In this document: one piece after another, positions 35,393-52,395 of the stretch
Layout of the letters: every line of letters starts with the position of its first letter
Position numbering within the stretch: position 1 is the stretch's first letter
Notes under the pieces: generated by a model
Databases searched by the model: none
Seen by the model: the letters and a program-made list of their open reading frames with translations, nothing else
Told to the model about the DNA's origin: nothing
Assembly: GCF_030440425.1 (NCBI RefSeq)
Contig: NZ_CP098023.1
Location: 3,594,501 to 3,658,500 of the forward strand
Direction: 5' to 3'
DNA: 64,000 bases
Origin: Microbulbifer sp. MI-G
GTDB taxonomy: Bacteria > Pseudomonadota > Gammaproteobacteria > Pseudomonadales > Cellvibrionaceae
Program-made: the position numbers and the translations under genes

Positions 35393-38300
35393 TCAGTCCA
35401 GCTTCATGCGATTGCACTGCAAAACCAAGTTGGTCTGCGCCAGCATGCTGTTGTGATCGCCTGATACGGTTAGCAACTTAACCTGACCTCGACATAAATC
35501 CTGCCAAGCAAGGTGATTAGCCTGTTGCTTACCGGCAAGATTTCCATCCTGAGCAATGATCAGATTGATATCAATGCTCTGCAGCAGGCTTTCCGGACGA
35601 TAATCCCGATAAGCTCGAATATCAGCACACACCTGTTCCACTAGGCCCTGATAATCGCTTTTGTTTATGCCGATCCGTTGTCTGGAGCAACAATCCATAA
35701 ACAGATCCAGCAAATCATTGCCAGAACCTTGCTGCGTAGCCTCTACAATAAATTCATGCGGTGATGCCCCAAGACCATTCATTAACTCAACAAACATTGA
35801 CTTTAGCAGACCTTGTGTATCGCTAAATAATACTTGCCACAGCAGTGGTGCAGCAGTATCCAGTAACGTCAAACTAACCACCTGTTGGCCAGCCTGTTGT
35901 AATTGCTGCACCATCTCAAAAGCCACTACACCACCAAAAGAGTGGCCAATAAGATGAGGTAGCTCTGAGCCGACTTGCGTAGATATAGCATTAATATAAT
36001 TACCTGCCAGTTCTTCAACCGTCAACGACTTCGCTCCCCAATTGCCATTGTGCACCACCCAGAAATCAGTATTGGGCAGCCTTTTTGCAATGGATTTCCA
36101 TGACTGGCTATTACCGGCGATACCTGATACGGCAAATACTGGTGGCTTTCCCTGTTTTTGCAACGGCAGCAGTAACTCAGGGATAAGCGGTTGCTGCAAC
36201 TCAATCAAAGCTCCGAGCTTTTTCGGAGTATGATGTGATAATACTGTGGTAAGCGGATAATCAAGTTGCTGCTGCTGATTAACCTTGCTCATCAATTGAA
36301 CAGCAAGAATTGAGTGTCCACCCAAATCGAAGAAGCTGTCATGAACACCAATTGTATCAACCGGTAGATCAAGCACCTCACCCCAAAGTGCTACAAGCTG
36401 TTTTTCCAGCTCGGTTCCAGGCGCCACATACTCCTTGGTACTCGGGATCTCCACGGACAGGCTTGCCAACTTATTCCGATCCACCTTGCCGTGATCTGTT
36501 ATGGGAATACTTGCCAGTGGATGAAATATCGCAGGCAGCATATAGCTGGGAAAGTGCTTCTCCAGATCAGCTCGTAACAATGCATTCAGATCGTCAACCG
36601 CAATGTCCCTATGGTTTCTGCGGCTGTAAAACGCCACCAAGTATCTATTCTCCCGAGAGCCTGTTTGCTGCAATACAACCGCACAGGATTGCACATCAGG
36701 GTGGCGACTTAACTGGACTTCAATTTCCTCTACTTCAATACGATAGCCCCTGATTTTTACCTGGGTATCCACCCTGTCCAGATATTGCAAACTGCCATCA
36801 TCCAGCCACCTCGCCCTGTCACCACTGCGATACATTCTCTCGCCTGCAACAAATGGATCCACCAGAAATCTCTGCTGCGTCAGCTCTGGCTGATTAACAT
36901 AACCCCTGGCCAACCCCGCCCCTGCAATATATAGCTCACCCGCTACTCCTATCGGCGCCAAACGGAAATAGTCGTCCAATATGTAAATACGGGTGTTGGC
37001 GATGGGTTGTCCTATAGACACCCCGCCATCCGGCAACAGCGCCAGATCATCCATACCAAAGCTTGCTGTAGTACAACCAACGGTTGCCTCCGTAGGTCCA
37101 TAAATATTAACAATCTCAACCTTTGCCGGATACGCTTGTAAAAATACCAGTTGCTCTTTGCTTAGGGCTTCACCACCAATAATAAGCCGCAGCGGCTTGC
37201 AGTCACTGGTGAATGTCGCACAGCGCAGGATAGACAAATGTGCTGGAGTGAGAGTAATAAAGTCATAGCTTTGCTGTAAAAACTTGCCGGAAGCAAATAA
37301 TTCAGTACCATCCAGTTCACTGATATTTACCAACCTGCCCGATACAAGCGGAACAAACAGTGCGGTAATTGATCCGTCAAACGTAAATGCTTGATGTGCA
37401 ATGCTGGACTGCCCTTCATCACTAACGTTCAGATACTGGTTTTTACAGTAAATTAAATAGTTCACTAAACTGCGATGCTCAATGGCAACGCCTTTTGGCT
37501 GACCTGTCGAGCCTGAGGTATAGATAACATAAGCAAGCCCGTTAACCTCCGCCCGCCGGCCCATAGCCGTGCCAGTGACGCATTGCCCACAGTCCTGACG
37601 GTCCTCATCTAAACAAATAATTTGCTGTTGTCTAAAACCCATTTCATGTAGTTCAGCGGCATGAGAGGACTCAGTAACAACCACATTGATCCCACTATTG
37701 GCCACTACATGTCTAAGGCGCTCTGCGGGATGCGCCACTGACAGGGGCACGTAGGCACAACCAGCACTCATAATACCCAGTAAAGCCACCATCATATTGA
37801 GAGAAGGCTGCAGATACACACCAATCAGTGCCTCAGCCGACAAATCATGCCCAGCTAAAACAGCGGCTAATTGTTCCACCCGCTCGGCTAACTGAGCGTA
37901 ACTCAACAGCTCCCCGGCACAGGAGACTGCCGGGGCATTAGGCAGGGTTTCCACCTGCTCATAGAACAAATCAATAAGGGTTTTATCAGCAGGAAAATCC
38001 GCATCTGTGTTATTGAAATCCTGAAGTAGGCGAATGCGCTCCTGCTCTGGCAGATAATTAAGCTTGGCCAAAGGTTGTTCGGCCTGCCTCAGTACCACAT
38101 CACACCAACCGGCAAAGTGCTGATACAGACGATCTATGGTTTGCGTGCTAAACAGATCCGTGCTGTATTCCAGGTTTAAGGTTAATCCTTCGGCCTGTTC
38201 AATAAATTCCAGGGTCAGATCAAATTTGCTCACCTGATGCGGTAACTGCAGTGGCTGAATATGCGCATCCAGTGCCACCTGCTGGGTATTCTGCAATACC

Positions 38301-41300
38301 ACCATTACCTGAAACAAGGGTGTGGCTGACAGGTTACGCTCCACCTGCATCGCCTCAACGATTTTTTCAAACGGTGCATCCTGGTGTTCATAGGCCGACA
38401 AACAGGTGTTCTTCACCGCTGCCAGCAGCTCGCTAAAACTGGCCTGTGGCTGCAGCTTGGTCCTCAATGGCAGGGTGTTTACAAACATACCAATCAACCG
38501 CTCGGTTTCCACAAAATGGCGGTTGGCAATAGGGCTACCTACACAGATATCGGTCTGGCCGCTGAATCGCCACAACAATACCTTGACCACACTCAGCAGC
38601 GTCATGAACAAAGTCGCACCCTGCTCTCTGGCAAACTGGTTCAGTTGCTGCAGTTGCTCTACCGGTAGGTGATAACTGCGTCTTGTGCCGACAAACCGCT
38701 GCACTTTGGGCCGCGGGAAGTCTGTCGCCAACTCCAGCAGTGGTGGTAGTCCCGCCAATTGTGTTTGCCAGTAATCCAACTGCTCGGACAGTAGTCCATG
38801 CTGCTCCAGGCGACGGCGTTGCCAGATACTGTAATCCGCATATTGGATTGGCAGTTCCGGTAGCTGTGGCTCACGCCCCTGCTGGTAAGCATGGAGTAAT
38901 TCGCCCAGTTCACTGAGTAATACACCGGTCGACCAGCCATCACTCACAATATGATGCATATTCAGCAGCAATACATGTTGTTGAGGGGACTGTTTAATCA
39001 CCAGCCCGCGCACTAACGGCCCTCTCTCTAAATCAAAGGGCTGCCGTGCTTCCTGTAGGCACAAGGCCTCGATAGCCTGCTGTGGCTGCTGATCCACAGA
39101 CAGGTCCTGATATTGAAACGCGAACTCCCTACTCTGCAGAACCCGCTGTCGGGCACTGCCATTTATATTCGGGAATACTGTACGCAATACCTCGTGGCGT
39201 GCAATCACCTGGTTGATCGCTTGATTGAGCGCTTCAATATCCAGAGTTCCCTGCCAAACAACAGCAAACGGTATATTATAATGACTGGCGCCAGGGTCGT
39301 GATGGGTCAAAAACCACAACCTTTCCTGGGCATAACTGACCGGCAGCAACCCTGCCTGTTGCTTTGGCCGAGGCTGTAACCCCCTGGCTCTAACAGGCAT
39401 TTCGGGTTGCGTGTTTTTAGCAATATAACTCGCTAACCCGGCTATGGTGTTGTGCTCAAAAATCAACTTCAATGGCAAATCCAGCGATAATCGCTGCCTG
39501 ATAAGTGAAAACAACTGGGTAGAGGTCAGTGAATGTCCACCCAAATCGAAGAAGCTGTCATGAACACCAATTGTACCGACCGGTAGATCAAGCACCTCAC
39601 CCCAAAGTGCTACAAGCTGTTTTTCCAGCTCGGTTCCAGGCGCCACATACTCCTTGGTACTCGGGATCTCCACGGACAGGCTTGCCAACTTATTCCGATC
39701 CACCTTGCCGTGATCTGTTATGGGAATACTTGCCAGTGGATGAAATATCGCAGGCAGCATATAGCTGGGAAAGTGCTTCTCCAGATCAGCTCGTAACAAT
39801 GCATTCAGATCGTCAACCGCAATGTCCCTATGGTTTCTGCGGCTGTAAAACGCCACCAAGTATCTATTCTCCCGAGAGCCTGTTTGCTGCAATACAACCG
39901 CACAGGATTGCACATCAGGGTGGCGACTTAACTGGACTTCAATTTCCTCTACTTCAATACGATAGCCCCTGATTTTTACCTGGGTATCCACCCTGTCCAG
40001 ATATTGCAAACTGCCATCATCCAGCCACCTCGCCCTGTCACCACTGCGATACATTCTCTCGCCTGCAACAAATGGATCCACCAGAAATCTCTGCTGCGTC
40101 AGCTCTGGCTGATTAACATAACCCCTGGCCAACCCCGCCCCTGCAATATATAGCTCACCCGCTACTCCTATCGGCGCCAAACGGAAATAGTCGTCCAATA
40201 TGTAAATACGGGTGTTGGCGATGGGTTGTCCTATAGACACCCCGCCATCCGGCAACAGCGCCAGATCATCCATACCAAAGCTTGCTGTAGTACAACCAAC
40301 AGTTGCCTCCGTAGGTCCATACATATTAACAATCTCAACCTTTGCCGGATACGCTTGTAAAAATACCAGTTGCTCTTTGCTTAGGGCTTCACCACCAATA
40401 ATAAGTCGCAGCGGCTTGCAGTCACTGGTGAATGTCGCACAGCGCAGGATAGACAAATGTGCTGGAGTGAGCTTAATAAAGTCATAGCTTTGTTGTAAAA
40501 ACTTGCCGGAAGCAAATAATTCAGTACCATCCAGTTCACTGATATTTACCAACCTGCCCGATACAAGCGGAACAAACAGTGCAGTAATTGATCCGTCAAA
40601 CGTAAATGACCAATGTGCAATGCTGGACTGCCCTTCATCACTAACGTTCAGATACTGGTTTTTACAGTAAATTAAATAGTTCACTAAACTGCGATGCTCA
40701 ATGGCAACGCCTTTTGGCTGACCTGTCGAGCCTGAGGTATAGATAACATAAGCAAGCCCGTTAACCTCCGCCCGCCGGCCCATAGCCGTGCCAGTGACGC
40801 ATTGCCCACAGTCCTGACGGTCCTCATCTAAACAAATAATTTGCTGTTGTCTAAAACCCATTTCATGTAGTTCAGCGGCATGAGAGGACTCAGTAACAAC
40901 CACATTGATCCCACTATTGGCCACTACATGTCTAAGGCGCTCTGCGGGATGCGCCACTGACAGGGGCACGTAGGCACAACCAGCACTCATAATACCCAGT
41001 AAAGCCACCATCATATTGAGAGAAGGCTGCAGATACACACCAATCAGTGCCTCAGCCGACAAATCATGCCCAGCTAAAACAGCGGCTAATTGTTCCACCC
41101 GCTCGGCTAACTGAGCGTAACTCAACAGCTCCCCGGCACAGGAGACTGCCGGGGCATTAGGCAGGGTTTCCACCTGCTCATAGAACAAATCAATAAGGGT
41201 TTTATCAGCAGGAAAATCCGCATCTGTGTTATTGAAATCCTGAAGTAGGCGAATGCGCTCCTGCTCTGGCAGATAATTAAGCTTGGCCAAAGGTTGTTCG

Positions 41301-42568
41301 GCCTGCCTCAGTACCACATCACACCAACCGGCAAAGTGCTGATACAGACGATCTATGGTTTGCGTGCTAAACAGATCCGTGCTGTATTCCAGGTTTAAGG
41401 TTAATCCTTCGGCCTGTTCAATAAATTCCAGGGTCAGATCAAATTTGCTCACCTGATGCGGTAACTGCAGTGGCTGAATATGCGCATCCAGTGCCACCTG
41501 CTGGGTATTCTGCAATACCACCATTACCTGAAACAAGGGTGTGGCTGACAGGTTACGCTCCACCTGCATCGCCTCAACGATTTTTTCAAACGGTGCATCC
41601 TGGTGTTCATAGGCCGACAAACAGGTGTTCTTCACCGCTGCCAGCAGCTCGCTAAAACTGGCCTGTGGCTGCAGCTTGGTCCTCAATGGCAGGGTGTTTA
41701 CAAACATACCAATCAACCGCTCGGTTTCCACAAAATGGCGGTTGGCAATAGGGCTACCTACACAGATATCGGTCTGGCCGCTGAATCGCCACAACAATAC
41801 CTTGACCACACTCAGCAGCGTCATGAACAAAGTCGCACCCTGCTCTCTGGCAAACTGGTTCAGTTGCTGCAGTTGCTCTACCGGTAGGTGATAACTGCGT
41901 CTTGTGCCGACAAACCGCTGCACTTTGGGCCGCGGGAAGTCTGTCGCCAACTCCAGCAGTGGTGGTAGTCCCGCCAATTGTGTTTGCCAGTAATCCAACT
42001 GCTCGGACAGTAGTCCATGCTGCTCCAGGCGACGGCGTTGCCAGATACTGTAATCCGCATATTGGATTGGCAGTTCCGGTAGCTGTGGCTCACGCCCCTG
42101 CTGGTAAGCATGGAGTAATTCGCCCAGTTCACTGAGTAATACACCGGTCGACCAGCCATCACTCACAATATGATGCATATTCAGCAGCAATACATGTTGT
42201 TGAGGGGACTGTTTAATCACCAGCCCGCGCACTAACGGCCCTCTCTCTAAATCAAAGGGCTGCCGTGCTTCCTGTAGGCACAAGGCCTCGATAGCCTGCT
42301 GTGGCTGCTGATCCACAGACAGGTCCTGATATTGAAACGCGAACTCCCTACTCTGCAGAACCCGCTGTCGGGCACTGCCATTTATATTCGGGAATACTGT
42401 ACGCAATACCTCGTGGCGTGCAATCACCTGGTTGATCGCTTGATTGAGCGCTTCAATATCCAGAGTTCCCTGCCAAACAACAGCAAACGGTATATTATAA
42501 TGACTGGCGCCAGGGTCGTGATGGGTCAAAAACCACAACCTTTCCTGGGCATAACTGACCGGCAGCAA
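35393..42568 (-). CDS. NRPS, C-terminal part: C4-A4-PCP4-C5-A5-PCP5-TE
   Basis: About 2390 aa. It opens at a TTG inside a condensation domain and has no in-frame ATG before the HHIVSDG catalytic motif, so it is not a credible independent gene. It is the continuation of the NRPS at 42526-52395 after a one-base deletion. Domains: C4 (motif near 42170), A4, PCP4 (Ser codon at 39530-39532), C5 (motif near 38950), A5, PCP5 (Ser codon at 36311-36313, GGHSILAV) and a type I thioesterase with GHSFGG (Ser codon at 35939-35941), LLDTAAP and GDHNSML, giving a full Ser-Asp-His set. Pocket codes read from the sequence are D-G-T-K-I-G-M-V-G for A4 and D-G-T-T-I-G-I-V-G for A5; I cannot assign their amino acids. 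The TE releases the finished chain by hydrolysis or cyclisation. No epimerisation domain is present. Confidence 0.85.
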   Translation of the reverse strand: MLPVSYAQERLWFLTHHDPGASHYNIPFAVVWQGTLDIEALNQAINQVIARHEVLRTVFPNINGSARQRVLQSREFAFQYQDLSVDQQPQQAIEALCLQEARQPFDLERGPLVRGLVIKQSPQQHVLLLNMHHIVSDGWSTGVLLSELGELLHAYQQGREPQLPELPIQYADYSIWQRRRLEQHGLLSEQLDYWQTQLAGLPPLLELATDFPRPKVQRFVGTRRSYHLPVEQLQQLNQFAREQGATLFMTLLSVVKVLLWRFSGQTDICVGSPIANRHFVETERLIGMFVNTLPLRTKLQPQASFSELLAAVKNTCLSAYEHQDAPFEKIVEAMQVERNLSATPLFQVMVVLQNTQQVALDAHIQPLQLPHQVSKFDLTLEFIEQAEGLTLNLEYSTDLFSTQTIDRLYQHFAGWCDVVLRQAEQPLAKLNYLPEQERIRLLQDFNNTDADFPADKTLIDLFYEQVETLPNAPAVSCAGELLSYAQLAERVEQLAAVLAGHDLSAEALIGVYLQPSLNMMVALLGIMSAGCAYVPLSVAHPAERLRHVVANSGINVVVTESSHAAELHEMGFRQQQIICLDEDRQDCGQCVTGTAMGRRAEVNGLAYVIYTSGSTGQPKGVAIEHRSLVNYLIYCKNQYLNVSDEGQSSIAHWSFTFDGSITALFVPLVSGRLVNISELDGTELFASGKFLQQSYDFIKLTPAHLSILRCATFTSDCKPLRLIIGGEALSKEQLVFLQAYPAKVEIVNMYGPTEATVGCTTASFGMDDLALLPDGGVSIGQPIANTRIYILDDYFRLAPIGVAGELYIAGAGLARGYVNQPELTQQRFLVDPFVAGERMYRSGDRARWLDDGSLQYLDRVDTQVKIRGYRIEVEEIEVQLSRHPDVQSCAVVLQQTGSRENRYLVAFYSRRNHRDIAVDDLNALLRADLEKHFPSYMLPAIFHPLASIPITDHGKVDRNKLASLSVEIPSTKEYVAPGTELEKQLVALWGEVLDLPVGTIGVHDSFFDLGGHSLTSTQLFSLIRQRLSLDLPLKLIFEHNTIAGLASYIAKNTQPEMPVRARGLQPRPKQQAGLLPVSYAQERLWFLTHHDPGASHYNIPFAVVWQGTLDIEALNQAINQVIARHEVLRTVFPNINGSARQRVLQSREFAFQYQDLSVDQQPQQAIEALCLQEARQPFDLERGPLVRGLVIKQSPQQHVLLLNMHHIVSDGWSTGVLLSELGELLHAYQQGREPQLPELPIQYADYSIWQRRRLEQHGLLSEQLDYWQTQLAGLPPLLELATDFPRPKVQRFVGTRRSYHLPVEQLQQLNQFAREQGATLFMTLLSVVKVLLWRFSGQTDICVGSPIANRHFVETERLIGMFVNTLPLRTKLQPQASFSELLAAVKNTCLSAYEHQDAPFEKIVEAMQVERNLSATPLFQVMVVLQNTQQVALDAHIQPLQLPHQVSKFDLTLEFIEQAEGLTLNLEYSTDLFSTQTIDRLYQHFAGWCDVVLRQAEQPLAKLNYLPEQERIRLLQDFNNTDADFPADKTLIDLFYEQVETLPNAPAVSCAGELLSYAQLAERVEQLAAVLAGHDLSAEALIGVYLQPSLNMMVALLGIMSAGCAYVPLSVAHPAERLRHVVANSGINVVVTESSHAAELHEMGFRQQQIICLDEDRQDCGQCVTGTAMGRRAEVNGLAYVIYTSGSTGQPKGVAIEHRSLVNYLIYCKNQYLNVSDEGQSSIAHQAFTFDGSITALFVPLVSGRLVNISELDGTELFASGKFLQQSYDFITLTPAHLSILRCATFTSDCKPLRLIIGGEALSKEQLVFLQAYPAKVEIVNIYGPTEATVGCTTASFGMDDLALLPDGGVSIGQPIANTRIYILDDYFRLAPIGVAGELYIAGAGLARGYVNQPELTQQRFLVDPFVAGERMYRSGDRARWLDDGSLQYLDRVDTQVKIRGYRIEVEEIEVQLSRHPDVQSCAVVLQQTGSRENRYLVAFYSRRNHRDIAVDDLNALLRADLEKHFPSYMLPAIFHPLASIPITDHGKVDRNKLASLSVEIPSTKEYVAPGTELEKQLVALWGEVLDLPVDTIGVHDSFFDLGGHSILAVQLMSKVNQQQQLDYPLTTVLSHHTPKKLGALIELQQPLIPELLLPLQKQGKPPVFAVSGIAGNSQSWKSIAKRLPNTDFWVVHNGNWGAKSLTVEELAGNYINAISTQVGSELPHLIGHSFGGVVAFEMVQQLQQAGQQVVSLTLLDTAAPLLWQVLFSDTQGLLKSMFVELMNGLGASPHEFIVEATQQGSGNDLLDLFMDCCSRQRIGINKSDYQGLVEQVCADIRAYRDYRPESLLQSIDINLIIAQDGNLAGKQQANHLAWQDLCRGQVKLLTVSGDHNSMLAQTNLVLQCNRMKLD
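36315..39533 (-). repeat. Repeat copy IV (C5-A5 region)
   Basis: 3219 bp. Relative to the next copy it differs mainly between about 37079 and 37403: the 322 position is Ile, 278 is Thr, and HQAF replaces HWSF just before the core Asp. A Gly to Asp change lies near the PCP edge. Confidence 0.9.
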
Positions 42569-42751
42569 CCCTGCCTGTTGCTTTGGCCGAGGCTGTAACC
42601 CCTGGCTCTAACAGGCATTTCGGGTTGCGTGTTTTTAGCAATATAACTCGCTAACCCGGCTATGGTGTTGTGCTCAAAAATCAACTTCAATGGCAAATCC
42701 AGCGATAATCGCTGCCTGATAAGTGAAAACAACTGGGTAGAGGTCAGTGAA
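39534..42751 (-). repeat. Repeat copy III (C4-A4 region), one base short
   Basis: 3218 bp. It differs from copy II mainly at about 40285-40410, including the Met codon at pocket position 322, and by the missing C at 42599-42602. Confidence 0.9.
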
Positions 42752-45700
42752 TGTCCACCCAAATCGAAGAAGCTGTCATGAACACCAATTGTACCGACCG
42801 GTAGATCAAGCACCTCACCCCAAAGTGCTACAAGCTGTTTTTCCAGCTCGGTTCCAGGCGCCACATACTCCTTGGTACTCGGGATCTCCACGGACAGGCT
42901 TGCCAACTTATTCCGATCCACCTTGCCGTGATCTGTTATGGGAATACTTGCCAGTGGATGAAATATCGCAGGCAGCATATAGCTGGGAAAGTGCTTCTCC
43001 AGATCAGCTCGTAACAATGCATTCAGATCGTCAACCGCAATGTCCCTATGGTTTCTGCGGCTGTAAAACGCCACCAAGTATCTATTCTCCCGAGAGCCTG
43101 TTTGCTGCAATACAACCGCACAGGATTGCACATCAGGGTGGCGACTTAACTGGACTTCAATTTCCTCTACTTCAATACGATAGCCCCTGATTTTTACCTG
43201 GGTATCCACCCTGTCCAGATATTGCAAACTGCCATCATCCAGCCACCTCGCCCTGTCACCACTGCGATACATTCTCTCGCCTGCAACAAATGGATCCACC
43301 AGAAATCTCTGCTGCGTCAGCTCTGGCTGATTAACATAACCCCTGGCCAACCCCGCCCCTGCAATATATAGCTCACCCGCTACTCCTATCGGCGCCAAAC
43401 GGAAATAGTCGTCCAATATGTAAATACGGGTGTTGGCGATGGGTTGTCCTATAGACACCCCGCCATCCGGCAACAGCGCCAGATCATCCATACCAAAGCT
43501 TGCCGTAGTACAACCAACAGTTGCCTCCGTAGGCCCGTACTCATTAACAACCTCAACCTTTGCCGGATACGCTTGTAAAAATACCAGTTGCTCTTTGCTT
43601 AGGGCTTCACCACCAATAATAAGCCGCAGCGGCTTGCAGTCACTGGTGAATGTCGCACAGCGCAGGATAGACAAATGTGCTGGAGTGAGCTTAATAAAGT
43701 CATAGCTTTGTTGTAAAAACTTGCCGGAAGCAAATAATTCAGTACCATCCAGTTCACTGATATTTACCAACCTGCCCGATACAAGCGGAACAAACAGTGC
43801 AGTAATTGATCCGTCAAACGTAAATGACCAATGTGCAATGCTGGACTGCCCTTCATCACTAACGTTCAGATACTGGTTTTTACAGTAAATTAAATAGTTC
43901 ACTAAACTGCGATGCTCAATGGCAACGCCTTTTGGCTGACCTGTCGAGCCTGAGGTATAGATAACATAAGCAAGCCCGTTAACCTCCGCCCGCCGGCCCA
44001 TAGCCGTGCCAGTGACGCATTGCCCACAGTCCTGACGGTCCTCATCTAAACAAATAATTTGCTGTTGTCTAAAACCCATTTCATGTAGTTCAGCGGCATG
44101 AGAGGACTCAGTAACAACCACATTGATCCCACTATTGGCCACTACATGTCTAAGGCGCTCTGCGGGATGCGCCACTGACAGGGGCACGTAGGCACAACCA
44201 GCACTCATAATACCCAGTAAAGCCACCATCATATTGAGAGAAGGCTGCAGATACACACCAATCAGTGCCTCAGCCGACAAATCATGCCCAGCTAAAACAG
44301 CGGCTAATTGTTCCACCCGCTCGGCTAACTGAGCGTAACTCAACAGCTCCCCGGCACAGGAGACTGCCGGGGCATTAGGCAGGGTTTCCACCTGCTCATA
44401 GAACAAATCAATAAGGGTTTTATCAGCAGGAAAATCCGCATCTGTGTTATTGAAATCCTGAAGTAGGCGAATGCGCTCCTGCTCTGGCAGATAATTAAGC
44501 TTGGCCAAAGGTTGTTCGGCCTGCCTCAGTACCACATCACACCAACCGGCAAAGTGCTGATACAGACGATCTATGGTTTGCGTGCTAAACAGATCCGTGC
44601 TGTATTCCAGGTTTAAGGTTAATCCTTCGGCCTGTTCAATAAATTCCAGGGTCAGATCAAATTTGCTCACCTGATGCGGTAACTGCAGTGGCTGAATATG
44701 CGCATCCAGTGCCACCTGCTGGGTATTCTGCAATACCACCATTACCTGAAACAAGGGTGTGGCTGACAGGTTACGCTCCACCTGCATCGCCTCAACGATT
44801 TTTTCAAACGGTGCATCCTGGTGTTCATAGGCCGACAAACAGGTGTTCTTCACCGCTGCCAGCAGCTCGCTAAAACTGGCCTGTGGCTGCAGCTTGGTCC
44901 TCAATGGCAGGGTGTTTACAAACATACCAATCAACCGCTCGGTTTCCACAAAATGGCGGTTGGCAATAGGGCTACCTACACAGATATCGGTCTGGCCGCT
45001 GAATCGCCACAACAATACCTTGACCACACTCAGCAGCGTCATGAACAAAGTCGCACCCTGCTCTCTGGCAAACTGGTTCAGTTGCTGCAGTTGCTCTACC
45101 GGTAGGTGATAACTGCGTCTTGTGCCGACAAACCGCTGCACTTTGGGCCGCGGGAAGTCTGTCGCCAACTCCAGCAGTGGTGGTAGTCCCGCCAATTGTG
45201 TTTGCCAGTAATCCAACTGCTCGGACAGTAGTCCATGCTGCTCCAGGCGACGGCGTTGCCAGATACTGTAATCCGCATATTGGATTGGCAGTTCCGGTAG
45301 CTGTGGCTCACGCCCCTGCTGGTAAGCATGGAGTAATTCGCCCAGTTCACTGAGTAATACACCGGTCGACCAGCCATCACTCACAATATGATGCATATTC
45401 AGCAGCAATACATGTTGTTGAGGGGACTGTTTAATCACCAGCCCGCGCACTAACGGCCCTCTCTCTAAATCAAAGGGCTGCCGTGCTTCCTGTAGGCACA
45501 AGGCCTCGATAGCCTGCTGTGGCTGCTGATCCACAGACAGGTCCTGATATTGAAACGCGAACTCCCTACTCTGCAGAACCCGCTGTCGGGCACTGCCATT
45601 TATATTCGGGAATACTGTACGCAATACCTCGTGGCGTGCAATCACCTGGTTGATCGCTTGATTGAGCGCTTCAATATCCAGAGTTCCCTGCCAAACAACA

Positions 45701-48700
45701 GCAAACGGTATATTATAATGACTGGCGCCAGGGTCGTGATGGGTCAAAAACCACAACCTTTCCTGGGCATAACTGACCGGCAGCAACCCTGCCTGTTGCT
45801 TTGGCCGAGGCTGTAACCCCCTGGCTCTAACAGGCATTTCGGGTTGCGTGTTTTTAGCAATATAACTCGCTAACCCGGCTATGGTGTTGTGCTCAAAAAT
45901 CAACTTCAATGGCAAATCCAGCGATAATCGCTGCCTGATAAGTGAAAACAACTGGGTAGAGGTCAGTGAATGTCCACCCAAATCGAAGAAGCTGTCATGA
46001 ACACCAATTGTACCGACCGGTAGATCAAGCACCTCACCCCAAAGTGCTACAAGCTGTTTTTCCAGCTCGGTTCCAGGCGCCACATACTCCTTGGTACTCG
46101 GGATCTCCACGGACAGGCTTGCCAACTTATTCCGATCCACCTTGCCGTGATCTGTTATGGGAATACTTGCCAGTGGATGAAATATCGCAGGCAGCATATA
46201 GCTGGGAAAGTGCTTCTCCAGATCAGCTCGTAACAATGCATTCAGATCGTCAACCGCAATGTCCCTATGGTTTCTGCGGCTGTAAAACGCCACCAAGTAT
46301 CTATTCTCCCGAGAGCCTGTTTGCTGCAATACAACCGCACAGGATTGCACATCAGGGTGGCGACTTAACTGGACTTCAATTTCCTCTACTTCAATACGAT
46401 AGCCCCTGATTTTTACCTGGGTATCCACCCTGTCCAGATATTGCAAACTGCCATCATCCAGCCACCTCGCCCTGTCACCACTGCGATACATTCTCTCGCC
46501 TGCAACAAATGGATCCACCAGAAATCTCTGCTGCGTCAGCTCTGGCTGATTAACATAACCCCTGGCCAACCCCGCCCCTGCAATATATAGCTCACCCGCT
46601 ACTCCTATCGGCGCCAAACGGAAATAGTCGTCCAATATGTAAATACGGGTGTTGGCGATGGGTTGTCCTATAGACACCCCGCCATCCGGCAACAGCGCCA
46701 GATCATCCATACCAAAGCTTGCCGTAGTACAACCAACAGTTGCCTCCGTAGGCCCGTACTCATTAACAACCTCAACCTTTGCCGGATACGCTTGTAAAAA
46801 TACCAGTTGCTCTTTGCTTAGGGCTTCACCACCAATAATAAGCCGCAGCGGCTTGCAGTCACTGGTGAATGTCGCACAGCGCAGGATAGACAAATGTGCT
46901 GGAGTGAGCTTAATAAAGTCATAGCTTTGTTGTAAAAACTTGCCGGAAGCAAATAATTCAGTACCATCCAGTTCACTGATATTTACCAACCTGCCCGATA
47001 CAAGCGGAACAAACAGTGCAGTAATTGATCCGTCAAACGTAAATGACCAATGTGCAATGCTGGACTGCCCTTCATCACTAACGTTCAGATACTGGTTTTT
47101 ACAGTAAATTAAATAGTTCACTAAACTGCGATGCTCAATGGCAACGCCTTTTGGCTGACCTGTGGAGCCTGAGGTGTAGATAACATAAGCAAGCCCGTTA
47201 ACCTCCGCCCGCCGGCCCATAGCCGTGCCAGTGACGCATTGCCCACAGTCCTGACGGTCCTCATCTAAACAAATAATTTGCTGTTGTCTAAAACCCATTT
47301 CATGTAGTTCAGCGGCATGAGACGACTCAGTAACAACCACATTGATCCCACTATTGGCCACTACATGTCTAAGGCGCTCTGCGGGATGCGCCACTGACAG
47401 GGGCACGTAGGCACAACCAGCGCTCATAATACCCAGTAAAGCCACCATCATATTGAGAGAAGGCTGCAGATACACACCAATCAGTGCCTCAGCCGACAAA
47501 TCATGCCCAGCTAAAACAGCGGCTAATTGTTCCACCCGCTCGGCTAACTGAGCGTAACTCAACAGCTCCCCGGCACAGGAGACTGCCGGGGCATTAGGCA
47601 GGGTTTCCACCTGCTCATAGAACAAATCAATAAGGGTTTTATCAGCAGGAAAATCCGCATCTGTGTTATTGAAATCCTGAAGTAGGCGAATGCGCTCCTG
47701 CTCTGGCAGATAATTAAGCTTGGCCAAAGGTTGTTCGGCCTGCCTCAGTACCACATCACACCAACCGGCAAAGTGCTGATACAGACGATCTATGGTTTGC
47801 GTGCTAAACAGATCCGTGCTGTATTCCAGGTTTAAGGTTAATCCTTCGGCCTGTTCAATAAATTCCAGGGTCAGATCAAATTTGCTCACCTGATGCGGTA
47901 ACTGCAGTGGCTGAATATGCGCATCCAGTGCCACCTGCTGGGTATTCTGCAATACCACCATTACCTGAAACAAGGGTGTGGCTGACAGGTTACGCTCCAC
48001 CTGCATCGCCTCAACGATTTTTTCAAACGGTGCATCCTGGTGTTCATAGGCCGACAAACAGGTGTTCTTCACCGCTGCCAGCAGCTCGCTAAAACTGGCC
48101 TGTGGCTGCAGCTTGGTCCTCAATGGCAGGGTGTTTACAAACATACCAATCAACCGCTCGGTTTCCACAAAATGGCGGTTGGCAATAGGGCTACCTACAC
48201 AGATATCGGTCTGGCCGCTGAATCGCCACAACAATACCTTGACCACACTCAGCAGCGTCATGAACAAAGTCGCACCCTGCTCTCTGGCAAACCGGTTCAG
48301 TTGCTGCAGTTGCTCTACCGGTAGGTGATAACTGCGTCTTGTGCCGACAAACCGCTGCACTTTGGGCCGCGGGAAGTCTGTCGCCAACTCCAGCAGTGGT
48401 GGTAGTCCCGCCAATTGTGTTTGCCAGTAATCCAACTGCTCGGACAGTAGTCCATGCTGCTCCAGGCGACGGCGTTGCCAGATACTGTAATCCGCATATT
48501 GGATTGGCAGTTCCGGTAGCTGTGGCTCACGCCCCTGCTGGTAAGCATGGAGTAATTCGCCCAGTTCACTGAGTAATACACCGGTCGACCAGCCATCACT
48601 CACAATATGATGCATATTCAGCAGCAATACATGTTGTTGAGGGGACTGTTTAATCACCAGCCCGCGCACTAACGGCCCTCTCTCTAAATCAAAGGGCTGC

Positions 48701-51700
48701 CGTGCTTCCTGTAGGCACAAGGCCTCGATAGCCTGCTGTGGCTTATCTGCTCCAGAGAAATCGTAAAAAGCAAATGCAAATGACCATTCTGACAGCAAAT
48801 GCTGACTGAGCTGATTCTGCTCTGTGTATATAACGCTACGTAATACTTCATGTCTGCATAAAATCTGGTTGAAGGCTCTATCGAAATTAGCCAGCTCAAA
48901 ATCACCGCTGATCGTTACTGCTCGCACACCATGGTATTCCGTATTATCAGGTTGTAATTTTTGTAAAAACCACATGCGCTCCTGAGCATAACTGAGTGGT
49001 ATCGCTTTAACATGTCGACGTAGTACTGGAATTTTTTCGTCTCCACTGGCTGCTTCAGTACTGATAAATGCTGCCAGGGACGCAATAGTAGGATGGGAAA
49101 ACAGACTCATCAGTTGCAATTCGATCGCCAGTTCCATTCTGATCCTAGACACCACCTGAGTCGCGGTTAATGAATGACCGCCCACCGCAAAGAAATCATC
49201 ATTAATGCCCAGTTCCGTATCCGGTAATTGTAGTGCTTCACACCAGATCGCCTGTAGGCTGTGTTCAATCTCGTTGCGGGGAGACACTTTTTCGGTTGGC
49301 GAATCACTTACTATCCTGATTTCCTGTAAGTGTTTACGATCGATTTTACCGTTGCCGGCCAGGGGAAACTGTTGCAGATGAGAGAACGCTGCTGGACGCA
49401 TAGGTTGGGCTAATCGCCGGGCAAGCCATTGTTGGATTTCTTCAAGTTCCTCGCTGGTCAATGCTTTTTCACGTTGATAAAACGCCACCAGTTTTTGATT
49501 TACTCCTTCCCCTTGTACCACCACAGCCACTTCGTCAAGCAAAGGATGTGAAGATGCTGTCACTTCTATTTCAAAGATTTCAATTCTGTATCCACGAAGC
49601 TTTATCTGGTTATCCAGTCTGCCAACAAAAGCAATAGTACCCTGCCTTGTCCAGTAGGCTTTATCACCACTACGATAAAGTTTTTCACCGGGAATAAATG
49701 GCGAATCGATAAATTTTTCTGCACTAAGCTGTGGATTATTTAAATAGCCCAGTGCCAAGCCCGCACCGCCAATGAAAAGCTCTCCGGCTACGCCTTCCGG
49801 CACTGGATTGAGTTGCTGATCCAGCACATACACCTGACTATTGCTCAGGGGTTTACCCAAACTAATTTCTACCTCAGCTGCACTTAGGTCGTCACTAGAT
49901 AGCTTCGAAACTGTGGTTTCTGTCGGTCCGTAATTGTTATAGATACGACATCGTGGATTGGCGTTTCTCGCCTGTTCAAGTAAATCTTTGCTGAGTGGCT
50001 CGCCTGCGAATACCAAGACCTGCTGGGGCATAACACACTGGCTATGTGACAGGGTGAACATGCGAAAATGAGACGGGGTGAGCTTGATGCAATCTATATT
50101 GTGACGATTGAAGTAGCTGAGTAACTCCGGCGGATTATGCACCAAATCTGTGTCAATGAGATGCAGAGTTTTGCCAAACAACAGGGAGACAAATAAATTG
50201 AAGTAACCCAAATCCGCTGATAATGTCGAAACATTGGCAAATACAGCACAGGACTGCAATTGCAATCTATCATAGATGCTACAGCAATAGTCAATCAGTG
50301 CACCCTGGCTTATCATTACCCCTTTTGGCTTACCAGTAGTACCTGATGTGTATATCACATAGGCTAAGCTATCACTGCCCGATTGCGCAACTGCGCCTGT
50401 GCTAAGCAGTGCAGCTGTATCTGCCAGGGTCACATCAATATCAATAACGGTTACATCAGGTAATTGTTTTAGTACCGTACTACTGGCAGACTGCACCATC
50501 AACCAATGACAGCCGCTATCTTGTAGAATCTTTGCCAGTCTGTCATCGGGAGTATCGGGATCAATTGGCAGGAACGCGGTACCAACCCGCCATGCAGCCA
50601 GCATTGCTGCCACCATAAACGCACCGCTTTCGGCAATAATAGCCACCAGTCCACCCGCCGGCAATTCATTTTTTTGCAAACTATAGGCCAGCTTTCTGAC
50701 CTGCTGTTCCAGCATAGCAAAACTCAGTTCTTCACCACGCCATACAAGTGCGACACGATCCGGATTAAGGCTTACCTGTTTACTAAATAATGAATAAAGC
50801 CCAGCTTTAGTTGGATACTCTCTCTTGGCAGTCTGCCCTAAACTGAGTAGTAATCTTTGTTGCTCAGGTGTACAGATCCGCAGATTTTGCAATTGTAGAT
50901 CTGGCTCCTTGCTGATCTGCTCAAGCAGATAGCTGAAGTGTTCTGCTAACTGCTGCACCAATACCGGTGAATACATGGATTCGTCAAATTTGAAACGTAA
51001 GGAAAAATCCTGATTTTTTTCAAACACTTCAAATGCAAATTCAAATTCACCCTGCTGATGGATATCTTCCACGATAGCCATATGCAATTGGTCATACATA
51101 GCCAAACCAGACAAATCACTACCCTGAGTAAAATTTTGGTACGCATAGGCCAGCTGAAATACCGGGTGACGATCTTTATTCTCGATATCAACCCCATTCA
51201 ACAATAATGGAAACGGATACTGACCATTAAACAGACCATCCAGCATGATTCGCCGGGCTTCTTTTAACAGTGCTGAAAACGCCATCTCGCTATCCACATT
51301 CATGCGTATAGCCAGCATATTGATAAAATACCCCAGCGTATTGGCATAATCTTTACTAGGTCGCCCCAAAGTCGGCATACCCAATACTATGTCCTGCTGA
51401 CCACTGTATTTATGTAACAGCAGTTGGAACATTCCCATAAAGAAAACAGATTTGGGTATTGACTGCTGTTCACAATATTGCGTTATCCAACTGACTCTTT
51501 GTTGCTCAAGTGCAAACCAAAGAGTCTGGTTTTGGGCCTGTCGACTAGATTTCTTCAGGTTGGGCACCAGTTCAAAGCTGTATAATTCATCGGCAAGTTG
51601 TTGGCGCCAGTACTGTTGTTGGGATCTGCCTTGCTGCGAGGCTATGAATGTCGTCTCCCACTGTACATAGTCGGCAAAATCAGCCCCCTGGTTCTCTGTC

Positions 51701-52395
51701 ACATATGGAATGTCTTGAAGCAGACTTTGATACCTAGCAAATAATTCTTGTAGTAATAGAATAGCTGATGTGCCATCAAGTATAATATGGTGAATAATAA
51801 TCAGCAGATAGTGTAATTTGCTGCTATCGGTATAGTAGTCGATTCGGGTTAACGGCGCATTATTCAGTGTGAATGGTATTTCCACAGCCTTTCTAATGGC
51901 TGCCAACATAGCATTTTTATCGGGCAGTAGTACATGGGTTCTTAATTCACTCAACCCCTGTTGTTCAACGTTATTTACCAATCCCTGAGGTGTTTCCTTA
52001 ATTCTGGCCATCAATATTGGATGCTGCTGCAACAGCTGCTGCCACGCCTGGTTGAATACTTTTGTGTCTATCGCTGCATCTAATGTAAGACATACAGGGA
52101 TGTTGTATGACACAGACTCAGGATTCTTTTGTTGAATAATATACAAACCTTTTTGTGCAATAGATAACGGAAAACTGACCGCTGCCTGACGCACAGACGA
52201 CTGAGTCTCACCTGCCTTTTTAACATCTCTTAGCAACAAAAGTTGAATAATCTCAGCTTTGTGGTGAATAATTTTTTGCTGGATCTCAGCTGTCACTACC
52301 CCTGGTTTGGCGTAACAGCTGAGTTGTTGCCCTTTGACAGCCAGTTTGATACCTGAAGACGATAATTGCTTCAAAAACTGAATTACAGTATGCAT
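42526..52395 (-). CDS. NRPS, N-terminal part: TubC dock-C1-A1-PCP1-C2-A2-PCP2-C3-A3-PCP3, then frameshift
   Basis: 3289 aa before the broken frame. Residues 1-60 form a TubC-type docking domain (GIKLAVKGQQLSC...IIHHKAEIIQLL). C1 has HHIILDG at 202. A1 has TSGTTG near 686 and GPTE near 823. PCP1 has Ser1075. C2 has HHIVSDG at 1262, and A2 and PCP2 (Ser2143) follow. C3 has its motif at 2335, then A3 and PCP3 (Ser3216). A2 and A3 share the pocket code D-G-T-K-I-G-E-V-G, close to the known Asn code D-L-T-K-L-G-E-V-G, so both probably load Asn or a relative. A1 reads D-L-F-K-V-A-N-V-S, which I cannot assign. After PCP3 the frame shifts at 42599-42602 and ends in about 25 nonsense residues. With one base restored it would continue into 35393-42568 as one 5667-aa synthetase. 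It starts 20 bp after the PKS stop. Confidence 0.9.
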   Translation of the reverse strand: MHTVIQFLKQLSSSGIKLAVKGQQLSCYAKPGVVTAEIQQKIIHHKAEIIQLLLLRDVKKAGETQSSVRQAAVSFPLSIAQKGLYIIQQKNPESVSYNIPVCLTLDAAIDTKVFNQAWQQLLQQHPILMARIKETPQGLVNNVEQQGLSELRTHVLLPDKNAMLAAIRKAVEIPFTLNNAPLTRIDYYTDSSKLHYLLIIIHHIILDGTSAILLLQELFARYQSLLQDIPYVTENQGADFADYVQWETTFIASQQGRSQQQYWRQQLADELYSFELVPNLKKSSRQAQNQTLWFALEQQRVSWITQYCEQQSIPKSVFFMGMFQLLLHKYSGQQDIVLGMPTLGRPSKDYANTLGYFINMLAIRMNVDSEMAFSALLKEARRIMLDGLFNGQYPFPLLLNGVDIENKDRHPVFQLAYAYQNFTQGSDLSGLAMYDQLHMAIVEDIHQQGEFEFAFEVFEKNQDFSLRFKFDESMYSPVLVQQLAEHFSYLLEQISKEPDLQLQNLRICTPEQQRLLLSLGQTAKREYPTKAGLYSLFSKQVSLNPDRVALVWRGEELSFAMLEQQVRKLAYSLQKNELPAGGLVAIIAESGAFMVAAMLAAWRVGTAFLPIDPDTPDDRLAKILQDSGCHWLMVQSASSTVLKQLPDVTVIDIDVTLADTAALLSTGAVAQSGSDSLAYVIYTSGTTGKPKGVMISQGALIDYCCSIYDRLQLQSCAVFANVSTLSADLGYFNLFVSLLFGKTLHLIDTDLVHNPPELLSYFNRHNIDCIKLTPSHFRMFTLSHSQCVMPQQVLVFAGEPLSKDLLEQARNANPRCRIYNNYGPTETTVSKLSSDDLSAAEVEISLGKPLSNSQVYVLDQQLNPVPEGVAGELFIGGAGLALGYLNNPQLSAEKFIDSPFIPGEKLYRSGDKAYWTRQGTIAFVGRLDNQIKLRGYRIEIFEIEVTASSHPLLDEVAVVVQGEGVNQKLVAFYQREKALTSEELEEIQQWLARRLAQPMRPAAFSHLQQFPLAGNGKIDRKHLQEIRIVSDSPTEKVSPRNEIEHSLQAIWCEALQLPDTELGINDDFFAVGGHSLTATQVVSRIRMELAIELQLMSLFSHPTIASLAAFISTEAASGDEKIPVLRRHVKAIPLSYAQERMWFLQKLQPDNTEYHGVRAVTISGDFELANFDRAFNQILCRHEVLRSVIYTEQNQLSQHLLSEWSFAFAFYDFSGADKPQQAIEALCLQEARQPFDLERGPLVRGLVIKQSPQQHVLLLNMHHIVSDGWSTGVLLSELGELLHAYQQGREPQLPELPIQYADYSIWQRRRLEQHGLLSEQLDYWQTQLAGLPPLLELATDFPRPKVQRFVGTRRSYHLPVEQLQQLNRFAREQGATLFMTLLSVVKVLLWRFSGQTDICVGSPIANRHFVETERLIGMFVNTLPLRTKLQPQASFSELLAAVKNTCLSAYEHQDAPFEKIVEAMQVERNLSATPLFQVMVVLQNTQQVALDAHIQPLQLPHQVSKFDLTLEFIEQAEGLTLNLEYSTDLFSTQTIDRLYQHFAGWCDVVLRQAEQPLAKLNYLPEQERIRLLQDFNNTDADFPADKTLIDLFYEQVETLPNAPAVSCAGELLSYAQLAERVEQLAAVLAGHDLSAEALIGVYLQPSLNMMVALLGIMSAGCAYVPLSVAHPAERLRHVVANSGINVVVTESSHAAELHEMGFRQQQIICLDEDRQDCGQCVTGTAMGRRAEVNGLAYVIYTSGSTGQPKGVAIEHRSLVNYLIYCKNQYLNVSDEGQSSIAHWSFTFDGSITALFVPLVSGRLVNISELDGTELFASGKFLQQSYDFIKLTPAHLSILRCATFTSDCKPLRLIIGGEALSKEQLVFLQAYPAKVEVVNEYGPTEATVGCTTASFGMDDLALLPDGGVSIGQPIANTRIYILDDYFRLAPIGVAGELYIAGAGLARGYVNQPELTQQRFLVDPFVAGERMYRSGDRARWLDDGSLQYLDRVDTQVKIRGYRIEVEEIEVQLSRHPDVQSCAVVLQQTGSRENRYLVAFYSRRNHRDIAVDDLNALLRADLEKHFPSYMLPAIFHPLASIPITDHGKVDRNKLASLSVEIPSTKEYVAPGTELEKQLVALWGEVLDLPVGTIGVHDSFFDLGGHSLTSTQLFSLIRQRLSLDLPLKLIFEHNTIAGLASYIAKNTQPEMPVRARGLQPRPKQQAGLLPVSYAQERLWFLTHHDPGASHYNIPFAVVWQGTLDIEALNQAINQVIARHEVLRTVFPNINGSARQRVLQSREFAFQYQDLSVDQQPQQAIEALCLQEARQPFDLERGPLVRGLVIKQSPQQHVLLLNMHHIVSDGWSTGVLLSELGELLHAYQQGREPQLPELPIQYADYSIWQRRRLEQHGLLSEQLDYWQTQLAGLPPLLELATDFPRPKVQRFVGTRRSYHLPVEQLQQLNQFAREQGATLFMTLLSVVKVLLWRFSGQTDICVGSPIANRHFVETERLIGMFVNTLPLRTKLQPQASFSELLAAVKNTCLSAYEHQDAPFEKIVEAMQVERNLSATPLFQVMVVLQNTQQVALDAHIQPLQLPHQVSKFDLTLEFIEQAEGLTLNLEYSTDLFSTQTIDRLYQHFAGWCDVVLRQAEQPLAKLNYLPEQERIRLLQDFNNTDADFPADKTLIDLFYEQVETLPNAPAVSCAGELLSYAQLAERVEQLAAVLAGHDLSAEALIGVYLQPSLNMMVALLGIMSAGCAYVPLSVAHPAERLRHVVANSGINVVVTESSHAAELHEMGFRQQQIICLDEDRQDCGQCVTGTAMGRRAEVNGLAYVIYTSGSTGQPKGVAIEHRSLVNYLIYCKNQYLNVSDEGQSSIAHWSFTFDGSITALFVPLVSGRLVNISELDGTELFASGKFLQQSYDFIKLTPAHLSILRCATFTSDCKPLRLIIGGEALSKEQLVFLQAYPAKVEVVNEYGPTEATVGCTTASFGMDDLALLPDGGVSIGQPIANTRIYILDDYFRLAPIGVAGELYIAGAGLARGYVNQPELTQQRFLVDPFVAGERMYRSGDRARWLDDGSLQYLDRVDTQVKIRGYRIEVEEIEVQLSRHPDVQSCAVVLQQTGSRENRYLVAFYSRRNHRDIAVDDLNALLRADLEKHFPSYMLPAIFHPLASIPITDHGKVDRNKLASLSVEIPSTKEYVAPGTELEKQLVALWGEVLDLPVGTIGVHDSFFDLGGHSLTSTQLFSLIRQRLSLDLPLKLIFEHNTIAGLASYIAKNTQPEMPVRARGYSLGQSNRQGCCRSVMPRKGCGF
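42599..42602 (-). other. One-base deletion in a C homopolymer causing a frameshift
   Basis: The linker after PCP3 has four C on the plus strand (42599-42602). The two sister copies of the repeat have five (39380-39384 and 45817-45821). The copy-to-copy distance here is 3218 rather than 3219, confirming a single missing base. The 35393-52395 span plus one base is divisible by three. Confidence 0.9.
42752..45970 (-). repeat. Repeat copy II (C3-A3 region)
   Basis: 3219 bp. Pocket code D-G-T-K-I-G-E-V-G, identical to copy I; I saw only scattered single-base differences from copy I. Confidence 0.9.
45971..48743 (-). repeat. Repeat copy I (partial, C2 core-A2 region)
   Basis: About 2773 bp. The first part of C2 (beyond 48743) is unrelated in detail to the other copies, so the array begins inside a condensation domain. 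Single-base differences from the other copies are visible near 47164, 47176, 47324, 47422 and 48293. Confidence 0.88.

What the first reader, a model, noticed from the sequence alone, without database searches (positions are those of the whole stretch)
36315..48743. Almost identical NRPS modules that differ mainly at substrate-pocket codons
The 3,219-bp C-A-PCP unit is repeated about 3.9 times with near-complete identity, including C domains and linkers. The differences I can see between A3, A4 and A5 fall largely within about 90-330 bp around the specificity residues: position 322 is E, E, M, I in A2-A5, 278 changes K to T in A5, and residues just before the core Asp change in A5. Identical frames with altered pockets suggest module duplication followed by short-tract recombination or selection on specificity, that is, natural subdomain exchange caught at an early stage. 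The alternative is a partly mis-assembled repeat.
Basis: seen in the sequence. Interest (0 to 1): 0.88.

Follow-up and report, generated by a model that had tools for sequence, protein, structure and literature searches.

The report
Near-identical peptide-synthetase modules, different pockets
A marine bacterium carries four almost letter-for-letter copies of one peptide-building enzyme module in a row, and three of the copies differ almost only in and around the pocket that chooses the amino acid, which looks like recombination keeping the frame uniform while the pockets stay different.

Summary
Confirmed. In a Microbulbifer trans-AT PKS-NRPS cluster, a 3,219-bp C-A-PCP unit is repeated 3.86 times (about 36315-48743). 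Modules 3, 4 and 5 are identical except for a 327-bp tract of the A core (17 of 20 variable sites; Fisher 9e-14), three sites at the last carrier domain's edge, and a one-base run-length difference that splits the synthetase into two ORFs. Module 2 shares module 3's pocket but has five private changes elsewhere.

New: synonymous sites vary in the same tract (M3-M5: 6 of 78 inside, 0 of 557 outside; p=3e-6), N/S ratio about 0.45. Point mutation after duplication explains this poorly; the tracts look older than, or foreign to, their identical flanks. It is not the usual core swap either: tracts stay 95-98% identical in protein, against 29-34% in two clear swaps among relatives. Best reading: homogenised array with short specificity islands retained by, or exchanged between, sister modules. 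No donor or close relative was found. Copy number, frame break, selection and substrates are untested. A sharp new case of known NRPS evolution.

The parts
42526..52395 (-). NRPS ORF A, 3289 aa: TubC_N docking domain, module 1 (C-A-PCP, not part of the array), modules 2 and 3 of the array
35393..42568 (-). NRPS ORF B, 2391 aa: modules 4 and 5 of the array and a C-terminal thioesterase; begins inside a repeat copy at a TTG with no docking-domain hit
36315..48743 (-). tandem array of the 3,219-bp C-A-PCP unit, 3.86 copies
45818..48743 (-). module 2 (M2); array edge in the N-terminal part of its C domain; private changes in the codons at 47164, 47176, 47323, 47422 (synonymous) and 48292 (R for Q)
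42599..45817 (-). module 3 (M3); same pocket as M2
39381..42598 (-). module 4 (M4); 322 = Met
36162..39380 (-). module 5 (M5); 322 = Ile, 278 = Thr, 230 = Gln, 231 = Ala; array edge at about 36314, next to the carrier serine (LGGHS motif) of its PCP
46723..47049 (-). pocket tract of M2 (identical to that of M3)
43504..43830 (-). pocket tract of M3
40286..40612 (-). pocket tract of M4: differs from M3 at 7 sites (4 synonymous codons, 2 replacement codons)
37067..37393 (-). pocket tract of M5: differs from M3 at 16 sites (6 synonymous codons, 5 replacement codons); 322 codon 37103-37105, 278 codon 37253-37255, 230 codon 37391-37393
42526..42604 (-). M3/M4 junction: one base shorter than the two sister junction copies in a short homopolymer, which shifts the frame and splits the NRPS into two ORFs
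33718..35085 (-). MATE exporter directly downstream of the NRPS
52416..63899 (-). PKS upstream of the NRPS (no AT domain among its Pfam hits)

Best explanation
The array is the C-terminal, five-residue NRPS part of a trans-AT polyketide/peptide assembly line. A C-A-PCP unit was amplified head-to-tail, with array edges in the N-terminal part of the M2 C domain and at the carrier serine of the M5 PCP, so the upstream-facing side and the thioesterase-facing side were kept (edges shown; benefit inferred). Recombination between the copies (unequal crossing-over or gene conversion, inferred) has made the frames almost identical. Two small islands in the A core escaped or were re-imported: one around residue 322 (offsets 905-952, shared by M4 and M5), and one around residues 278 and 230 (offsets 1091-1231, M5 only). 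They come from sister modules of the same A-domain lineage that already differed in specificity, not from an unrelated A domain (inferred). Selection for different building blocks at residues 4 and 5 probably keeps the islands apart (inferred). Residues 2 and 3 should be the same amino acid, residues 4 and 5 different ones (prediction).
For: Clustering of 17 of 20 variable sites among M3-M5 in 327 of 2,772 bp. Synonymous changes share the tract: M3 v M5 6 of 78 synonymous sites inside, 0 of 557 outside the PCP edge, p=3e-6. Changes of two or three bases in one codon (GAG to ATG or ATT, AAG to ACT, TGG to CAA) beside 2,394 bp with no change among M3-M5. Pocket codons 278 and 322 are hit, and position 230 follows the 278 type in relatives (Ser in 47 of 60 with K278, Ala in 47 of 51 with T278). 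M3-M5 tracts are 95-98% identical in protein, unlike two heterologous core swaps in relatives (29% and 34%). Only the four array copies match the tract in the own genome, apart from a 19-bp chance match. The cycle of homogenisation and break-out by functional divergence is the model of Medema 2014 (passages read).
Against: No violation of the four-gamete test: every site fits the tree ((M2,M3),(M4,M5)), so recombination is inferred from clustering and from synonymous sites, not from conflicting histories. No donor was found. Only 7 synonymous differences carry the key argument. M2 and M3 share a pocket yet still differ at five sites, so homogenisation is incomplete. M4 v M5 still differ by synonymous sites at 1025 and 920, outside the two islands as I draw them, which needs either further exchange or later mutation. 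Small pocket differences between similar modules also occur in relatives without identical flanks (6 of 9 code-differing pairs). Selection is not shown.
Confidence: 0.55

Rival explanations
1. Recent duplication followed by point mutations in the pocket under positive selection, or by a local mutation shower.
For: Two of five replaced codons are code positions (P of at least 2 = 0.053); no four-gamete conflict; single-position pocket differences between similar modules exist in relatives (P0301, P0302, P0279, P0268 and P0248).
Against: Seven synonymous changes lie in the same 327 bp and, apart from two at the PCP edge, none elsewhere among M3-M5; N/S ratio 0.45; two or three changes within single codons.
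Confidence: 0.18
2. Assembly or consensus artefact: wrong copy number, or pocket variants placed in the wrong copy.
For: A 12.4-kb near-perfect repeat is hard to assemble; a one-base length difference in a homopolymer splits the gene in one of three otherwise identical junctions. M3 has no private substitution and M4 only one.
Against: The copies are distinguishable (M2 by 5 private columns, M5 by 13, M4 by 1 and its residue 322, M3 by its combination of sites); 4.48 Mb in 2 contigs at 99.99% completeness. Random consensus error would not choose pocket codons.
Confidence: 0.17
3. Classical A-core subdomain exchange from an unrelated module (the hormaomycin or microcystin type), caught early.
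For: The position of the tract, within the A core, is where natural exchanges fall (PMC8097286, passages).
Against: The tract is still 95-98% identical in protein; two clear exchanges in relatives are 34% and 29% (P0146, P0116).
Confidence: 0.07
4. Targeted hypermutation such as a diversity-generating retroelement.
For: Changes are confined to a short coding tract; the genome holds four reverse-transcriptase matches, three over the family cut-off.
Against: Those matches lie at C1 0.89 and 2.02 Mb, over 1.5 Mb from the cluster; of 17 tract columns, 4 are C/T and 3 are G/T with no A on the coding strand; no other copy of the tract exists in the genome.
Confidence: 0.02

Closest known systems
Hormaomycin NRPS A-core subdomain exchange (Cruesemann, Kohlhaas, Piel 2013; recalled, and cited in PMC8097286 passages)
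   Same: Modules in one cluster whose differences centre on the A core
   Different: Here only 2-5 residues of the tract differ; no heterologous core. No sequence comparison with hormaomycin was made.
A-core recombination survey of Baunach et al. 2021 (PMC8097286, passages)
   Same: Recombination targets the A core; the C-A linker and A-sub tend to stay
   Different: Their events exchange part of the A core between modules, clusters or species; here tracts of at least 48 and 141 bp differ between near-identical sisters
Concerted evolution of PKS/NRPS modules, Medema et al. 2014 (PMC4256081, passages)
   Same: Copies homogenised by internal recombination; functionally diverged domains escape
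   Different: Here the escape is seen inside one domain, down to tens of base pairs around pocket codons
mcyB1/mcyC A-domain replacement in microcystin synthetases, 2007 (PMC2174460, passages)
   Same: A domain alone is exchanged between modules of one cluster; pockets differ by 1-6 residues in most strains
   Different: There the C domains are highly divergent; here C domains are identical within one genome (M3-M5)
Wollamide/desotamide bifurcation, Booth et al. 2022 (PMC9205934, passages)
   Same: Duplication followed by intragenomic A-domain recombination
   Different: Whole-gene duplication with a donor found elsewhere in the genome; here tandem modules and no donor

Membership tests
Modular NRPS (C-A-PCP elongation modules with TE) | C, A, PCP in each module and a terminal thioesterase | tested here: met
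   Pfam stretches: 5 Condensation, 5 AMP-binding, 5 PP-binding, 1 Thioesterase over ORFs A and B
Modular NRPS (C-A-PCP elongation modules with TE) | Unbroken reading frame through the modules | tested here: not met
   Frame changes by one base at the M3/M4 junction; sequencing error or real lesion not decided
trans-AT PKS-NRPS cluster | PKS modules without AT domains and discrete ATs in the cluster | tested here: met
   No AT hit in the 6 PKS ORFs scanned with Pfam; two AT-like proteins at L138:15786-17904, one over and one below the fabD cut-off
trans-AT PKS-NRPS cluster | Beta-branching cassette (HMGS, KS, ACP, ECH) | tested here: met
   HMG-CoA synthase at L049:290-1549, KS and ACP at L138:17927-19395, ECH domains inside PKS ORFs; no stand-alone ECH was looked for
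Natural A-core subdomain exchange | Identity drops only inside the A core while C, A-sub and PCP stay alike | tested here: met
   M3-M5, apart from the M5 PCP edge
Natural A-core subdomain exchange | Replacing segment comes from another A-domain lineage (large drop in identity; my criterion) | tested here: not met
   At most 5 of 109 tract residues differ; two clear exchanges in relatives differ at 71 of 107 and 75 of 105
Natural A-core subdomain exchange | A donor can be named | tested here: not met
   No donor in own genome, 47 other genomes of the genus, the 390-genome order sample or the 120 listed hits of each protein search. PMC8097286 found plausible partners for only 5 of 12 events in one set, so this does not exclude it.
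Concerted evolution of NRPS modules | Sister modules far more alike than expected from their specificity divergence | tested here: met
   0 synonymous differences among M3-M5 in 557 sites outside the tract and PCP edge; 6 of 78 inside for M3 v M5
Concerted evolution of NRPS modules | Modules cluster by gene cluster rather than by position when orthologous clusters are compared | not testable with these tools
   No orthologous cluster was found

The most novel reading that the evidence does not exclude
An NRPS array in which recombination keeps about 90% of each module uniform while tracts of roughly 50-150 bp around single pocket codons are independently kept or traded between sister modules. 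Specificity would then evolve by swapping one or two pocket patches (322 alone in M4; 322 plus 278/230 in M5) without touching any domain interface, giving a natural series of minimal reprogramming steps on one fixed frame.
Probability: 0.35. Interest if true: 0.75.

Novelty: new member of a known kind. Interest (0 to 1): 0.55.

Why it matters
Modules identical in C domain, linkers, A-sub and nearly all of the PCP, but with different pockets, form a ready-made natural experiment. Differences in substrate, rate or acceptance by the C domain can be assigned to one patch (M3 v M4: 2 residues) or two (M4 v M5: 4 tract residues, plus 1 at the PCP edge). If M3, M4 and M5 activate different amino acids, this shows very small natural steps by which an assembly line changes its product, and that an identical C domain accepts all of them, which bears on the C-domain gatekeeping debate. 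The pocket combinations K278+M322 (0 of 60 K278 domains) and T278+I322 (0 of 51 T278 domains) and W230 (0 of 532) were not seen in the relatives checked, so the substrates may be unusual.

Tried and rejected
Early-stage heterologous core swap: rejected as worded, because the tract is too similar. An unequal-crossover chimera reading of M3 (5' part like M5, 3' part like M2) was considered; it is compatible but not required, since private mutations in M2 explain it and there is no four-gamete conflict. Retroelement mutagenesis: disfavoured. Search for orthologous clusters: searches gave none; others (plasmids; 29 records, best place 7% of the query; genome contigs, same query) gave nothing of use. 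The large alignment misplaced position 278 (698 of 1,088 domains read T), so its code columns were dropped and redone pair by pair; there position 331 reads as a gap in several pairs and one pair (P0245) has a misplaced code. The 278/322/230 counts are, which covers the 240 proteins only; residues 230/231 were taken by counting back from Asp235, because one search had gaps there. One search scored only the 92 within-protein pairs with overall identity above 0.70 (one search compared 1,467 pairs), so core swaps below that are not in its table; one search lists several. Many of its near-identical pairs come from related Paenibacillus strains and are not independent. A first, smaller survey (120 proteins) found 9 pairs of at least 85% identity, all 9 with the same residues at the seven code positions read. 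Structure prediction was not run, because the tool returns no coordinates to measure pocket distances.
Full report
What is there. The window lies at C1:3594501-3658500 of a 4.48-Mb genome in 2 contigs, 99.99% complete. So the genus is Microbulbifer; no tool names the species. The NRPS is the peptide end of a trans-AT PKS-NRPS cluster: six PKS ORFs without AT hits, an HMG-CoA synthase, discrete KS, ACP and two AT-like proteins, a MATE exporter and MacB/ABC/HlyD exporter genes. GC is 38-52% per kb across the window against about 55% in two host stretches (gyrB locus and L051). In the genus search 18 of 48 genomes, own included, have some DNA match to the unit, but outside the own genome no match is longer than 192 bp. 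Horizontal acquisition is therefore likely (inference).

The repeat. Four in-register copies, period 3219, 3218, 3219. In gene order they are modules M2, M3 (ORF A) and M4, M5 (ORF B); M1 is not part of the array (32% identity to ORF B). The array edges lie in the N-terminal part of the M2 C domain (48743) and next to the carrier serine of the M5 PCP (about 36314).

Where the copies differ. Over 924 codons, 25 nucleotide columns vary: 17 in unit offsets 905-1231, 3 at the M5 PCP edge (152-197; one replacement, G to D) and 5 private to M2 (1346-2475; four synonymous, one R/Q). M3, M4 and M5 have no substitution outside the tract and the PCP edge. Replacements in the tract: 322 E,E,M,I; 319 V,V,I,I; 278 K,K,K,T; 231 S,S,S,A; 230 W,W,W,Q. 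Synonymous codons in the tract: 905, 920, 935, 938, 1025, 1112, 1202. By branch, six columns separate M2/M3 from M4/M5, all within 48 bp (905-952); ten M5-only tract columns fall at 920, 941 and 1091-1231; M4 alone differs at 1025.

What this says about mechanism. If the pockets had changed by point mutation after duplication, synonymous sites should be as quiet in the tract as outside it. They are not: M3 v M5 6 of 78 synonymous sites inside, 0 of 557 outside the PCP edge (p=3e-6); M3 v M4 4 of 78 against 0 of 568 (p=2e-4). The tract ratio of replacement to synonymous change per site is 0.45 (10/248.7 over 7/78.3), not distinguishable from 1 (p=0.14) and not above it. So the tracts look like segments with an ordinary diverged history and the flanks do not. 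Two routes fit: homogenisation of the flanks with the pockets retained, or import of short tracts from a diverged sister. I cannot separate them without related strains. The data fit one tree with no four-gamete conflict, so recombination is inferred from clustering.

How unusual. In 360 related proteins (the 120 listed by each of three searches, which had 7,997, 7,994 and 2,370 hits) I found 1,088 A domains in 359 proteins. Of 92 within-protein pairs with overall identity above 0.70, 22 are at least 97% identical outside the tract; in 2 of these 22 the pocket code differs (P0301 and P0302, apparently two versions of one Paenibacillus protein, one position). At 99% or more it differs in 0 of 6. 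At 85% or more it differs in 9 of 49; in 6 of those 9 the tract is still at least 80% identical (P0301, P0302, P0279, P0268, P0248, P0262), so modest pocket changes on a shared core do occur elsewhere, but without identical flanks. In the two clearest core exchanges (P0116, P0146) tract identity is 29% and 34%; a third (P0245) is at 68%. Here outside identity is 100% among M3-M5 within the A domain, tract identity 95-98%, and the code differs. The pattern is rare in this sample, not unprecedented in kind. The sample is biased to relatives of this protein and holds many related Paenibacillus strains.

Substrates. M2/M3 read D-G-T-K-I-G-E-V-G (positions 235-331; K517 not checked), which resembles the Asn-type code DLTK(L/V)GEVG (recalled; DLTKIGEVG and DLTKVGEVG are 21 of 538 domains) with Gly at 236 and Trp at 230. 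K278 occurs with E, H or N at 322 in 60 of 60 relatives, never with M; T278 never with I (0 of 51); W230 in 0 of 532, Q230 in 2 of 532 (6 of 538 domains dropped). I therefore do not name the substrates of M4 and M5.

Frame break. The M3/M4 junction is identical to the M2/M3 and M4/M5 junctions except for one base fewer in a short homopolymer. It ends ORF A in a short out-of-frame tail and leaves ORF B starting at a TTG at the start of the C domain. A residual long-read error is my first guess, a real lesion the second; the sequencing method is unknown to me. A natural gene boundary is unlikely, because the other two copies of the same DNA run straight through.

Literature. Passages (not whole papers) were read of PMC8097286, PMC9205934, PMC7486941, PMC11355689, PMC4256081, PMC13126170, PMC2533009 and PMC2174460. 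Most establish A-core recombination, A-domain-only exchange or concerted evolution as known processes; PMC11355689 gave only an MbtH passage on hormaomycin, PMC13126170 only how 34-residue pocket signatures are taken. Further search listings. One search (Microbulbifer with NRPS, polyketide, cluster and trans-AT terms; 15 of 211 papers listed) showed none on this cluster by title; that is one search of an open-access library. Hormaomycin details are recalled or from citations in PMC8097286.

Verdict. It is a clean instance of known processes (module amplification, homogenisation, A-core diversification) at unusually fine grain. The mechanism is inferred; selection, substrates, copy number and the frame break are untested.

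Noticed in passing
42526-42604: One-base length difference in a homopolymer at the M3/M4 junction is why the NRPS appears as two overlapping ORFs.
   Followed up: partly
L138:15786 to L050:13119 (C1:3570286-3671619): The cluster spans about 100 kb (true ends not determined): trans-AT PKS with beta-branching cassette, two discrete AT-like proteins, exporter genes and a NusG-like protein (L050:12592-13119) at one end, perhaps a cluster-specific antiterminator.
   Followed up: partly
whole window: GC 38-52% per kb in the cluster against about 55% in two host stretches; no DNA match of the NRPS unit over 192 bp in 47 other genomes of the genus: probably a foreign island.
   Followed up: partly
11579-26551: The 4990-aa PKS starts with an FAD monooxygenase-like domain (FMO/Pyr_redox hits), which may oxidise the polyketide chain.
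   Followed up: no
L050:2215-5277: GMC oxidoreductase fused to an aldehyde dehydrogenase in one 1020-aa protein beside the PKS.
   Followed up: no
31853-31899: 47-bp overlap between a START-like ORF and a PKS ORF whose first 600 residues have no Pfam hit; a second frame problem is possible here.
   Followed up: no
A domains M2-M4, residue 230: Trp at position 230 with Gly at 236; Trp there was seen in 0 of 532 related A domains, so the parental pocket itself is unusual.
   Followed up: partly
33718-35085: MATE exporter hits the solanimycin exporter family SolL weakly (79 bits, cut-off 780).
   Followed up: no
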